Assembly (NCBI GenBank): GCA_026707225.1
Contig: JAPOXG010000025.1
Span: 62,001-126,000, forward strand
Length of the DNA stretch: 64,000 nucleotides
From: Chloroflexota bacterium
GTDB lineage: Bacteria > Chloroflexota > Anaerolineae > Aggregatilineales > Phototrophicaceae
Reading direction: 5' to 3'
The notes under the pieces were generated by a model. It did not search any database, had not been told where the DNA came from, and saw only the letters and a program-made list of their open reading frames with translations. Made by a program: the position numbers and the translations under genes. Of this stretch, positions 29,767 through 34,412 are shown piece by piece. Every line of letters begins with the position of its first letter. The stretch's first letter is position 1.

Positions 29767-30828
29767 ATGGAATACTCGCTGCAAGCCGACCATCTCACCA
29801 AGCTCTACAACGGGCATGCGCCAGCCGTCAATGATATTACCTTGCGGGTGCGCCCCGGTGAATTCCTGACTCTGCTCGGCCCCAGCGGGGGCGGAAAGAC
29901 GACAACGCTGCGTCTGCTCGCCGGATTCGAAACGCCGACGCGCGGCCGCATTCAGATCGGCGAACATATCGTCGCCGACGATTCGCATTTCACGCCGCCG
30001 GAGAAACGCAAAGTGGGCATGGTCTTCCAGGATTACGCGCTCTTCCCCCATGTCGATGTCGCCGGCAATATCGCATTTGGCTTGCGCGGACCGCGAAAGG
30101 AGCAGGCCAGGCAAGTCGAGCGTTTGCTAACCCTCATCGGCTTGACCCAATTTGCCGAGCGCATGCCCTATGAGCTTTCGGGCGGGCAGCAGCAGCGGGT
30201 GGCGCTGGCCCGCGCATTGGCGCCGAATCCCGATATTCTGCTGCTCGACGAACCTTTCTCAAATCTCGATACCGGCTTGCGAGCGCAAGTTCGCACCGAA
30301 GTTCGCCATATCTTGCTAGAGACTGGCGCCACTGCCATCTTCGTCACCCATGACCAACACGAAGCCTTGAGCCTCTCTGACGAGATCGCGGTCATCTTCG
30401 ATGGAAAACTCATTCAAGTCGCCACCCCGCACGTGCTCTACAATCGTCCCGTAAACATGCAGGTGGCGAAGTTTGTCGGCGACGCCAACTTCCTGCCGGC
30501 TGACGCCCACGGGATGACAGCAGACAGCCGCCTGGGTGAAGTCAAGCTCTTTCATCCCAAGACGGGACCCGTCCAACTCATGATCCGGCCCGAGGCGCTG
30601 GCGGTCAGGCTCGACGAAGCAGGCAAGCGCGCTACGGTGCAATGGCGCGAGTTTTACGGACATTATCAACGGCTTGGCTTAGCTTTGGCGGATGGCGCTG
30701 AATTGATTGCCCAGGCGGGCGTCGACCGATACTACCGGCGCGGCGACCAGGTATCGGTGTCGCTGGCGCTGCCCGCCCTGGCTTATGACAGCGAGAGCGA
30801 GCGCGCGCTGACTCAAAATGCAATTTAA
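29767..30828 (+). CDS. Fe(III) ABC transporter ATP-binding protein
   Basis: Walker A GPSGGGKTT; LSGGQQQRVALARALAPNPDILLLDEPFSNLD. Confidence 0.95.
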   Translation: MEYSLQADHLTKLYNGHAPAVNDITLRVRPGEFLTLLGPSGGGKTTTLRLLAGFETPTRGRIQIGEHIVADDSHFTPPEKRKVGMVFQDYALFPHVDVAGNIAFGLRGPRKEQARQVERLLTLIGLTQFAERMPYELSGGQQQRVALARALAPNPDILLLDEPFSNLDTGLRAQVRTEVRHILLETGATAIFVTHDQHEALSLSDEIAVIFDGKLIQVATPHVLYNRPVNMQVAKFVGDANFLPADAHGMTADSRLGEVKLFHPKTGPVQLMIRPEALAVRLDEAGKRATVQWREFYGHYQRLGLALADGAELIAQAGVDRYYRRGDQVSVSLALPALAYDSESERALTQNAI

Positions 30829-30963
30829 TTATGACTTGAACTTGACTGGATAGAACATATGTACTATCCTTGTCTTTAGCGTAATGACAGAGCCGATTTG
30901 TCGAAGGTGCTTTACACTAGATATACTAGCGTTGGTTGGCAAAACCAAGGGGAGCACGATCCA

Positions 30964-31884
30964 ATGATTACCTATGTCGTTGGAGACCTATTTACAAGCC
31001 CAGCCAAGGTCCTGGTTAACACCGTAAACACAGTTGGAGTTATGGGTAAGGGTATTGCTCTTGACTTCAAGCGGATTTACCCGGACATGTTTATAGAATA
31101 CCAATACTACTGCGAAAACGGGATGTTGGACATTGGCAAACTGTGGCTCTACAAGACTCCGCACAAATGGATTCTGAATTTCCCGACAAAGAAACACTGG
31201 CGGAGTATGTCCAAGTCCGAATACATATCGGCGGGCCTAGATAAGTTCGTCAATACCTACGACTCAAAAGGGATCGACTCGATTTCATTCCCAATGCTGG
31301 GCTGCGGAAACGGTGAGTTAGACTGGAATACTGAAGTACAGCCCTTAATGGAGAAATATCTGGAGAAGCTGCCAATCAACGTATTCATACATATTCTTCC
31401 GCATGAGCACTATATTCGTCCTGAGCACAAAGCAATTGACGAAATGAAAAAATGGTTGCGGGAAGAACCCCATGCACTGTCATTTAGCGAGTTTTGGGAC
31501 GACTTGTCATACGTTGCCCGAAAACAGCATGACTTTTTTACCACTATTGGCAACACGCGATTTTCAATGATTCTGCTCGAAGACGAGGATAGCTTCCATC
31601 TTGCGACCCAGGATGACGTAATTGTAATTGGACTCGATGCACTCCGCGACTTCTGGCAGCTAGTGCGCAGCAGCGGCTATTGCAAGGGAAATGAGTTCCC
31701 AGCTGGTCTTAACCAATATCACCACTTCTTGATCCCGATTCTCGACCAATTGCCATATGTCCAGGCAACTCTTCTGTCGCGTCAATACAATGTAGATGCT
31801 ACCGACCTAGGCATTCAATTGATTCCGGAGTCCCAAGTCTTTGCACTACCCTCAATCGAAGTGCGACAGTCCATTACAGCATGA
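30964..31884 (+). CDS. darG: DarG-like macrodomain protein (putative antitoxin, ADP-ribosylglycohydrolase)
   Basis: MITYVVGDLFTSPAKVLVNTVNTVGVMGKGIALDFKRIYPDMFIEYQYYC...ILNFPTKKHWRSMSKSEYISAGLDKFV; precedes a DarT-like gene with ATGA overlap; ATG 30964 preferred over 30898. Confidence 0.85.
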   Translation: MITYVVGDLFTSPAKVLVNTVNTVGVMGKGIALDFKRIYPDMFIEYQYYCENGMLDIGKLWLYKTPHKWILNFPTKKHWRSMSKSEYISAGLDKFVNTYDSKGIDSISFPMLGCGNGELDWNTEVQPLMEKYLEKLPINVFIHILPHEHYIRPEHKAIDEMKKWLREEPHALSFSEFWDDLSYVARKQHDFFTTIGNTRFSMILLEDEDSFHLATQDDVIVIGLDALRDFWQLVRSSGYCKGNEFPAGLNQYHHFLIPILDQLPYVQATLLSRQYNVDATDLGIQLIPESQVFALPSIEVRQSITA

Positions 31885-32879
31885 AATACGATAGTAAAAG
31901 GGATATACAATCGTATCGCGACACGATAAACAGCGTGGCGATGAGTCTCGATACCAATCGACGATGGTGGACCAACTATGTTTTCCACTTCACTTCAATT
32001 GGTAATGCAGCGAACATACTCAAGACTGGACATCTACTTTCGCGTACACAAGTCAGTATTCGATTGCCGGAGTTTGACGACAGCGCGAGCCCTGAAGTTA
32101 TGCACCAAACTCAGGACCAGTGGAAAGACTTTGTCAGATTCTATTTTCGACCTCGAACACCTACTCTGTATCACAATGAAGGATTTCGCCCAATACGTTC
32201 ACAACAGCTTAGCGCTCACTGTCCCATACCCATATACTTTCTTTTCGATTTTCTCTCAGTCATTGGTCATTCTGAAGCCGAGTTTTCGCCTGGAACATTA
32301 GCAAGATCAAGTGCCCTAACCTTTCGAACTGCGAATGAATTTTCCCGGTTACCCTTTGACAAAATATATCATGACTCTTGGTTTGACCAGGAAGACAAAG
32401 ATGACATCATAAGTGCGCGACAGGCTGAAGTCATCTATCCAGAAGAACTAAACCTTCGTTCACTGAAATTAATCTGCTGTCGCTCACCAGCGGAGAAGGA
32501 TACGCTACGCAATCTGCTTTCTTCACAATTGTGGGACGAATGGAAGGACAGGGTCAAGATCGTCGGACACCAACCTGTATACTTCAAAAAATGGCTATAC
32601 ATCGAAAGAGTTACGCTTGAGGATGATGCCGTACAACTTGAGCTTAATCTCCCTGAGCGCAGCGAGGACTATGGTCCGTTCGAAATTCGATCTACAGTAA
32701 CTGACGACATCACAGGTGTGTCGAAAGAAGTAGTAACGGAAAATGCAACGATTGATACAGGTCGGATGCGCTACTATGGACTAAAGAAATATGGCATCGC
32801 GGGTTATCAATATAGATGTTCAATTAACGATGATCTGGCATATCTCGGCAAGCATCAAGATCGGAGCATTCCCTTCTAA
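31881..32879 (+). CDS. darT: DarT-like (DUF4433) DNA ADP-ribosyltransferase, C-terminally extended
   Basis: VFHFTSIGNAANILKTGHLLSR; ARQAEVIYPEELNLRSLKLICCRS around the expected catalytic Glu; coupled to the macrodomain gene. Confidence 0.8.
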   Translation: MKYDSKRDIQSYRDTINSVAMSLDTNRRWWTNYVFHFTSIGNAANILKTGHLLSRTQVSIRLPEFDDSASPEVMHQTQDQWKDFVRFYFRPRTPTLYHNEGFRPIRSQQLSAHCPIPIYFLFDFLSVIGHSEAEFSPGTLARSSALTFRTANEFSRLPFDKIYHDSWFDQEDKDDIISARQAEVIYPEELNLRSLKLICCRSPAEKDTLRNLLSSQLWDEWKDRVKIVGHQPVYFKKWLYIERVTLEDDAVQLELNLPERSEDYGPFEIRSTVTDDITGVSKEVVTENATIDTGRMRYYGLKKYGIAGYQYRCSINDDLAYLGKHQDRSIPF

Positions 32880-32927
32880 GTCAGCACTCCCTGTCCGAAT
32901 GCTCAAGACACGCTGTCCCTCTGGCTG

Positions 32928-34412
32928 TCATGCCCCCGGCAGCCAAACGCGAAACTCCGCGCCTTTGCCTCGACCGCCGCTGTCGACAGTGATGCGGCCG
33001 CCATGCGCCTCGACAATCTCCCGCGCGATCGCCAGCCCCAGTCCCGTTCCCCGCCGGGGACCGCGAGCCTTGTCCACCTGGTAGAAGCGCTCGAACACCC
33101 TCGATAACTCCTCGCGCGGAATGCCCATGCCACTGTCTCGAATCGAGACGACCGCGCCAGCGCCAGCGCGCTCAACCGCCACCCCGACGACACCGCCCTC
33201 CGGCGTATATTTGAGCGCATTGCTAATCAGGTTCATCAATACTTGCGCCAGGCGATCGCCATCACCGATGATTGTCGGCGCCTGCTCGATAGCCGATTCC
33301 AGATGGATCTGCTGCTTTTCCGCGACGACAGCCAGGCTCTGTACCGCGCCCTCGGCGAGCTGAGCCATGTCGATGCGGTCGCTCGCCATTGACAGCCGGC
33401 CCGCCTGCAGCCGCTCCAGATCAGTCAGCTCAACCACCATCCGGTTCAGCCGGCCGGCCTCTTCGTAGATGATCTGCGCCGCTTCGCCGCTGTCTTCGGC
33501 CGCGCCATCGATGATCGCCTGGGCGTATCCTTGAATCGATGTCAGCGGCGTCTTGAGATCATGCGACACGTTGCTCAGAAAATCGCGCTGAGCCGTGTTA
33601 GCCGCCAGCACTTCCGCCGTCATCTGATTAAATGATTCGGCCAGCGAACGCGCTTCCGGCGGTCCGCTGACGGGCGCCCGCGCGGAATAGTCGCCGCGCG
33701 CCACCGCCGTTGCCGCCCGCGCCACGCGTTGCAGCGGTCGCGCGAAATTGCGGCTGATCAAGGCTGCCAGAATGATGGCGAATGCGAATCCAGCGATGCC
33801 AGCTTGCAGGAGCGGGGGCGCCAGCGCATTGCTGAAGACCGCCAGCGTCTCTTGCAAACTGACGGTCGGCTGAAGCTCGGCCAAGAGCCAGAGGTCGTTA
33901 TGGTCCACGCGTTCGGCAAAGAAGCGCTGCTGGCCAAAGACGACGCCGCCATAAAGCCATTCTCGCCCGCCGGGGTCTTCAAAGCCACCGAAGAATTGCC
34001 GGCTGCCACGCGACAGGACAGTTGCCAGTTGCTTGCTTCGGTATGCGTCTGCGCGCAAGTGAATCAGATCGCCCGGCGCATACTGCCGCGCGCTATCATA
34101 GATGACTCTGGTTTGGTCTTGAGTCAGCAGTATATGCAAGGTCCTCACGTTGCGCGTCCTGGCGAAGACGGCTAGCAACTCGTGCACCTGTTCCTGCAGG
34201 AAACGCCTGTTGGGATCCGCGGCGATATCAGCGATGGCATCAATGTAATTCAAGCCCTGCGTGAGCGCTGCCAGGCGCTCGTAAGTGGGCTGAGGCGGCG
34301 CGTCTCGATTGCCTATCAGGACGATCAGCGCCAATGCAATCACACTCAGCGTTACCAATATCAGTACCAAATACGAAGTCAGCAGCCGCAGTCGCAAATT
34401 GAAGCTAGGCAT
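32928..34412 (-). CDS. Sensor histidine kinase (HAMP, HisKA, HATPase)
   Basis: RDFLSNVSHDLKTPLTSIQGYAQAI; NLISNALKYTPEGG; RGTGLGLAIAREIVEAHGG. Confidence 0.93.
   Translation of the reverse strand: MPSFNLRLRLLTSYLVLILVTLSVIALALIVLIGNRDAPPQPTYERLAALTQGLNYIDAIADIAADPNRRFLQEQVHELLAVFARTRNVRTLHILLTQDQTRVIYDSARQYAPGDLIHLRADAYRSKQLATVLSRGSRQFFGGFEDPGGREWLYGGVVFGQQRFFAERVDHNDLWLLAELQPTVSLQETLAVFSNALAPPLLQAGIAGFAFAIILAALISRNFARPLQRVARAATAVARGDYSARAPVSGPPEARSLAESFNQMTAEVLAANTAQRDFLSNVSHDLKTPLTSIQGYAQAIIDGAAEDSGEAAQIIYEEAGRLNRMVVELTDLERLQAGRLSMASDRIDMAQLAEGAVQSLAVVAEKQQIHLESAIEQAPTIIGDGDRLAQVLMNLISNALKYTPEGGVVGVAVERAGAGAVVSIRDSGMGIPREELSRVFERFYQVDKARGPRRGTGLGLAIAREIVEAHGGRITVDSGGRGKGAEFRVWLPGA

What the first reader, a model, noticed from the sequence alone, without database searches (positions are those of the whole stretch)
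30829..32880. DarTG-like toxin-antitoxin module in reversed (antitoxin-first) order on a low-GC insert
A DarG-type macrodomain gene (VNTVNTVGVMGKGIALDFK, NFPTKKHW) is followed by a DarT-like DUF4433 gene with an ATGA start/stop overlap (31881-31884). Canonical darTG operons place darT first. By eye this segment is clearly AT-richer than the flanking ABC-transporter and histidine-kinase genes, consistent with horizontal acquisition. DarTG modifies DNA thymidines and acts in phage defence.
Basis: partly seen in the sequence, partly recalled or inferred. Interest (0 to 1): 0.68.

Follow-up and report, generated by a model that had tools for sequence, protein, structure and literature searches.

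The report
SOS-linked, antitoxin-first DarTG module variant
This is an intact two-gene toxin-antitoxin pair of the DNA-modifying DarTG kind, with the antitoxin gene first, a new type of antitoxin tail, and a promoter carrying what looks like the host's DNA-damage (SOS) control site; it matters because DarTG has been tied to DNA damage only as a cause of it, not as something switched on by it.

Summary
darG (30964-31884) and darT (31881-32879) overlap by ATGA, are intact, keep the catalytic residues, and sit on a ~2.1 kb insert at 46% GC in ~60% GC DNA. The antitoxin-first order is no local oddity: all 24 non-fused loci I class with this family have it, across several phyla. (1) DarG's C-terminal half is unrelated to the DarT-blocking domain of canonical DarG, and DarT carries an extra C-terminal beta-sandwich. 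(2) The promoter has a LexA-type operator in its 17-bp spacer, nearly identical to the host's imuA-like promoter; a matrix built only from host SOS genes puts this site first in the 64 kb window (25.5 bits; next 13.9). (3) Of 34 genomes of the genus seven carry the module, all at this one site, each beside an empty relative, and the module tree contradicts the host tree: repeated acquisition. (4) Relatives in the host family include TIR-DarT fusions whose DarT catalytic Glu is always Gln (7/7, against 0/25 of the others). Best reading: a new variant of the macrodomain-type (DarTG2-like) system, SOS-gated, probably anti-phage. Toxicity, target base and LexA binding are untested.

The parts
30806..32931 (.). 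approximate extent of the insert between the ABC-ATPase gene and the convergent histidine-kinase gene; absent in the closest relatives
   Evidence: comparison with the empty sites of G002 and G028; no direct repeat of 8 bp or more at the ends; GC dip
30842..30870 (+). predicted sigma70-type promoter TTGACT-17 bp-TATCCT
   Evidence: same layout in the same-site relatives G018, G013 and G009 and in G000 recA and imuA-like
30851..30866 (.). LexA-type operator TAGAACATATGTACTA filling the promoter spacer
   Evidence: top site of the 64 kb window with a matrix made only from host dinB-like, imuA-like and LexA-like promoters: 25.5 against 13.9 for the next
30947..30954 (+). ribosome-binding site AAGGGGAG, 9 nt before the darG ATG
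   Evidence: sequence
30964..31884 (+). darG-type antitoxin gene, 306 aa
30964..31392 (+). DarG macrodomain (aa 1-143), predicted thymidine-ADPr hydrolase; equivalent of the catalytic Lys80 of T. aquaticus DarG is Lys76 (31189-31191)
   Evidence: 44-47% identical to solved DarG macrodomains in the fold search; phmmer E 1.2e-35 to 5m3i
31411..31881 (+). DarG C-terminal domain (aa ~150-306), no known family; presumed DarT-binding part
   Evidence: no Pfam, PHROGs or NCBIfam match over this part; hhalign against canonical DarG C-terminal domains 0.2% probability; conserved in the relatives
31881..32879 (+). darT-type toxin gene, 332 aa, start overlaps the darG stop (ATGA)
31968..32561 (+). DarT ADP-ribosyltransferase domain (aa ~30-227); catalytic Glu183 at 32427-32429 in RQAEVI, His36 conserved
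   Evidence: Pfam 35-226; Foldseek 7omy E 4.7e-11; alignments
32577..32876 (+). DarT C-terminal beta-sandwich domain (aa ~233-332), outside the DarT Pfam domain and beyond the ends of solved DarT structures
   Evidence: AlphaFold2 model, mean pLDDT 82, pTM 0.85; weak fibronectin-III-like hits, E ~2e-3

Best explanation
A DNA ADP-ribosylating toxin-antitoxin module under the host's SOS control. Shown by sequence: darG and darT form one overlapping, intact operon; both enzymes keep the catalytic residues of the macrodomain-type (DarTG2) system; the promoter carries an operator of the type found in front of the host's own SOS genes. Inferred: LexA (or the genus's HTH-only LexA-like protein) represses the operon; DNA damage or stalled phage replication de-represses it; DarG is made first and holds DarT through its unrelated C-terminal domain and by hydrolysing ADP-ribose off DNA; when phage infection upsets that balance, DarT ADP-ribosylates ssDNA, most likely on thymine, stops replication and aborts the infection. 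DarT lesions would themselves feed the SOS signal, so antitoxin and toxin are topped up together. The module moves horizontally and keeps landing at, or being exchanged at, one intergenic site.
For: Family assignment. Catalytic Glu183, His36 and Lys76 conserved. SOS box: a matrix from dinB-like, imuA-like and LexA-like sites ranks 30851 first in the window and the darG upstream site first in 8 relative loci (L023-L027, L029-L031). imuA-like TTGACT-GAATAGTACAAATGTTC-TATACTTG against darG TTGACT-GGATAGAACATATGTAC-TATCCTTG; recA TTGCGC-CTTTAGAACAACAGTGC-TATCCTTG. The genes behind those host sites are an IMS-family polymerase, RecA-family proteins and LexA-domain proteins. In 34 genomes AGAACATNTGTTCT occurs 18 times against 0 for the reversed control; 11 of the 18 lie at the HTH-only LexA-like gene. 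Site history: 7 of 34 genomes carry the module, all at one site, at least 7 changes on the host tree; holding the modules of host neighbours G000, G011 and G016 together is rejected (p-AU 1e-60).
Against: No experiment. The C-terminal domain's role as DarT binder rests only on its position. NCBIfam equivalog cut-offs for DarT (43 against 150) and DarG (188 against 250) are not reached, so function may have shifted. The SOS box is absent in same-site G016 and in the Latescibacterota, Schekmanbacteria, Alkalibacterium and Rhizobiaceae loci and in the class-wide members, so SOS control would be a property of this host group's copies, not of the family. The box in front of the dinB-like gene is not in the same promoter register. 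The matrix rests on three sites.
Confidence: 0.62

Rival explanations
1. Ordinary DarTG2 in every functional respect; gene order and C-terminal differences are neutral, and the operator only lowers expression.
For: Same enzyme folds and catalytic residues; canonical toxin-first pairs use the same macrodomain.
Against: The C-terminal domain is not recognisable as a diverged canonical one and is shared across phyla together with the long DarT and the order; the operator matches the host SOS promoters closely.
Confidence: 0.2
2. Related mechanism on another target: the long DarT with its beta-sandwich domain modifies a different base, or RNA, and the macrodomain reverses that.
For: DarT scores far below the DarT equivalog cut-off and is only ~20% identical to solved DarT2; DarT1 shows that the base can change (PMC11543638); T. 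aquaticus DarG also removes ADP-ribose from uracil (PMC13036486).
Against: The partner is a DarG-type macrodomain with the catalytic Lys, not a NADAR.
Confidence: 0.15
3. The operator serves an autoregulator or another repressor rather than LexA.
For: Toxin-antitoxin operons are often autoregulated (general knowledge); an EPEC island holding DarTG2 is repressed by RptR (PMC12255303); the genus has an HTH-only LexA-like protein whose own promoter carries the best box.
Against: The same box type precedes host recA, imuA-like, dinB-like and lexA in the same genome; no DNA-binding domain is seen in DarG or DarT.
Confidence: 0.2
4. A passenger or decaying insert without function.
For: Absent from most relatives.
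Against: Both frames intact; catalytic Glu conserved in all 25 non-fused DarT compared; coupling and promoter kept in divergent copies.
Confidence: 0.05

Closest known systems
DarTG2 (DarT2 plus macrodomain DarG; T. aquaticus, M. tuberculosis, EPEC)
   Same: DarT ART fold and catalytic Glu; DarG macrodomain with catalytic Lys; two-gene operon
   Different: antitoxin first; DarG C-terminal domain unrelated; DarT has a C-terminal beta-sandwich; LexA-type operator; below the NCBIfam equivalog cut-offs
DarTG1 (DarT1-NADAR)
   Same: DarT-type toxin with a hydrolase antitoxin
   Different: the partner here is a macrodomain protein, not a NADAR
RptR-controlled EPEC island holding DarTG2 (PMC12255303)
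   Same: a DarTG under a transcriptional repressor
   Different: RptR is a separate small regulator with another site; here the operator is of the host's LexA type
YbiA-YarT of myxobacteria (PMC11125620)
   Same: hydrolase antitoxin gene upstream of an ART toxin gene
   Different: NADAR-type hydrolase and a different ART; no macrodomain

Membership tests
DarTG2 | DarT-type ART domain with catalytic Glu | tested here: met
   PF14487 102.7 bits against cut-off 22.5; RQAEVI Glu183; fold hit 7omy
DarTG2 | macrodomain antitoxin with the catalytic Lys of DarG | tested here: met
   best structural hits are DarG 5m3e, 5m31 and 5m3i; Lys76 in NFPTKKHW
DarTG2 | homologous DarT-binding C-terminal domain in DarG | tested here: not met
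   hhalign 0.2% probability against 13 DarG of the canonical C-terminal type; PADLOC and NCBIfam DarG models match residues 1-150 only
DarTG2 | NCBIfam equivalog score cut-offs for DarT and DarG | tested here: not met
   43.1 against 150 and 188.3 against 250
DarTG2 | darT upstream of darG | tested here: not met
   toxin-first comparators L126, L129, L138
DarTG2 | ADP-ribosylates thymidine in ssDNA; toxic; neutralised by DarG | not testable with these tools
   needs expression and mass spectrometry
DarTG1 | NADAR antitoxin | tested here: not met
   partner is a macrodomain protein
host LexA (SOS) regulon | operator of the host type in the promoter | tested here: met
host LexA (SOS) regulon | LexA binding and damage-induced expression | not testable with these tools
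   needs gel shift and expression data

The most novel reading that the evidence does not exclude
A third class of DarTG (antitoxin-first 'DarGT') with its own neutralisation domain and a two-domain toxin, wired in this host genus into the SOS response so that DNA damage arms a DNA-damaging defence. In the same host family the class has given rise to TIR-DarT fusions in which a dead DarT would be the sensor and the TIR domain the effector.
Probability: 0.35. Interest if true: 0.72.

Novelty: new variant of a known kind. Interest (0 to 1): 0.55.

Why it matters
DarT lesions are known to trigger SOS, and SOS lessens DarT toxicity (PMC7003065). A DarTG operon whose own promoter carries a LexA-type operator would close that loop and make an open question, what arms DarTG, directly testable with one promoter fusion. 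An unrelated DarG tail in the same place would show that DarT can be neutralised by more than one domain. The TIR-DarT series suggests a switch of DarT from DNA-modifying effector to sensor.

Tried and rejected
Flank-mediated exchange between the occupied genomes G018 and G000: no sign, because G000's flanks stay closest to empty G002 and G028 (88-92%) right up to the insert. Target-site duplication or terminal direct repeats of 8 bp or more: none. Vertical inheritance within the close hosts G000, G011 and G016: rejected; one clade for all seven same-site modules is not rejected (p-AU 0.55). Phage records: no match to DarT. A second DarT elsewhere in the genome: none. Known family for the DarG C-terminal domain: none in Pfam, NCBIfam or PHROGs; fold searches were dominated by the macrodomain, so they say little about this domain. 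The primary phage-defence paper on DarTG was not held. No paper found on antitoxin-first macrodomain DarTG, LexA control of DarTG or TIR-DarT fusion; the library is open-access only, so this is weak evidence of novelty.

Full report
What is there. The window holds two overlapping genes on the + strand: a 306-aa macrodomain protein (30964-31884) and a 332-aa DarT-domain protein (31881-32879), joined by ATGA. The start of the first gene is taken as ATG 30964 because AAGGGGAG lies 9 nt upstream; the longer TTG ORF is not preferred. Pfam, PADLOC and fold searches agree on macrodomain plus DarT. The segment is at 46% GC between flanks at about 60%, with lower GC3.

Catalytic residues. DarG keeps VNTVNTVGVMGKG and the Lys of NFPTKKHW (Lys76, the equivalent of Lys80 of T. 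aquaticus DarG, named as catalytic in PMC5179494). DarT keeps the His of FHFT and Glu183 in RQAEVI, which I take as the equivalent of the Glu160 whose mutation abolished toxicity in PMC5179494.

What differs from canonical DarTG. First, order: of the non-fused loci of this family every one I could read is antitoxin-first: the window, L023-L030, L014 (Latescibacterota MAG), L015 (Schekmanbacteria MAG), L016 (Alkalibacterium), L018 (Rhizobium), L020 (Agrobacterium), L106, L107 and L110 (viral contigs), and L187-L191, L193 and L195. Canonical pairs in the same scan (L126, L129, L138) are toxin-first, and L103-L105 are divergent with a canonical DarG tail. Second, the DarG C-terminal half (aa ~150-306) matches no family and, in a profile-profile comparison, does not match canonical DarG tails (0.2% probability); in three Rhizobiaceae and two viral-contig loci it is too diverged to be recognised by BLASTP. 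In the canonical system this tail blocks DarT; the title of Deep et al. 2023, cited in PMC11125620, describes it as ssDNA mimicry. That the new tail does the same job is inference. Third, DarT carries about 100 extra residues, modelled as a beta-sandwich, with only weak fibronectin-III-like hits. Fourth, neither protein reaches the NCBIfam equivalog cut-off. I therefore do not file it as a plain DarTG2 but as a variant that probably works like one.

Promoter. TTGACT-17-TATCCT at 30842-30870 has its spacer filled by TAGAACATATGTACTA. The host's lexA promoter carries GAACATTTG and CAAATGTTC half-sites; an HTH-only LexA-like gene, an IMS-type polymerase (dinB-like), a RecA-family protein resembling ImuA, and recA itself carry related boxes. 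A matrix made from only the dinB-like, imuA-like and LexA-like sites scores the darG site 25.5 against 13.9 for the next best place in 64 kb, and ranks the darG-upstream site first in eight relative loci, but not in G016, L014-L016, L018, L020 or L033 or in the class-wide members. The imuA-like and darG promoters are nearly the same sequence through the -35, spacer and -10. The 14-mer AGAACATNTGTTCT occurs 18 times in 34 genus genomes and its reversed control never; 11 of the 18 lie at the HTH-only LexA-like gene. So the operator is of the host LexA type; binding is not shown.

History. The locus could be read in all 34 genus genomes. Seven, this one included, carry the module between the ABC ATPase and the kinase; the closest relatives of this genome, G002 and G028, have 33 and 35 bp there. 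Each occupied genome is a lone tip on the host tree (at least 7 changes). The modules of close hosts G000, G011 and G016 are only about 42% identical in DarT, while that of distant G018 is 58% identical; the AU test rejects grouping by host. No other genus genome has a non-fused long DarT elsewhere. G033 has a different insert at the site, with a lone DarG-type macrodomain of 146 aa. This is repeated gain, or replacement and loss, at one site; by what route is unknown, as there are no terminal repeats and no sign of flank exchange.

TIR-DarT fusions (noticed in passing). Seven DarT relatives, all in the host's own family, are fused to an N-terminal TIR domain. All seven have Gln where DarT has its catalytic Glu; all 25 non-fused members compared have Glu. 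Six of the seven have also lost the active-site His, and most macrodomain partners are altered in the catalytic loop. One operon (L031) reads macro, UDG-like, TIR-DarT, dUTPase. A dead DarT used as a DNA sensor for a TIR effector is the obvious hypothesis; not tested.

Limits. All functional statements are inferences from sequence and from named papers.

Noticed in passing
L031 5995-7428, L032 6879-8291, L033 2809-4236, L192, L194, L196, L197: TIR-DarT fusion proteins in the host's family; all 7 have Gln in place of the DarT catalytic Glu while 25 of 25 non-fused relatives keep Glu. Suggests a dead DarT as sensor for a TIR effector.
   Followed up: partly
L031 4561-8222: Operon macrodomain, UDG-like protein, TIR-DarT, dUTPase and a small protein with a weak DUF6077 match, with a weaker LexA-type box upstream.
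   Followed up: partly
L084 1611-1889 (G000:C20): An HTH-only LexA-like gene (92 aa, no peptidase domain) with a LexA-type box in its own promoter; relatives with the same exact box in about 11 genomes of the genus.
   Followed up: partly
L064, between the ABC ATPase and the kinase: In G033 the same site holds a different 2.4 kb low-GC insert with a lone 146-aa DarG-type macrodomain, a putative membrane protein and a potassium-channel-like gene (last two judged by eye).
   Followed up: no
L028 1645-2904 (G016): DarG of 419 aa with an insertion in its C-terminal half that resembles a GIY-YIG/T5orf172-like segment by eye (YVYIQR...YKIGHTSNP); Pfam shows only the macrodomain.
   Followed up: no
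L103-L105: Viral contigs with darG and darT divergently transcribed: long-type DarT paired with a canonical DarG tail.
   Followed up: no
L114-L185: Many viral contigs carry stand-alone DarG-type macrodomains of about 150 aa, candidates for anti-DarT proteins.
   Followed up: no
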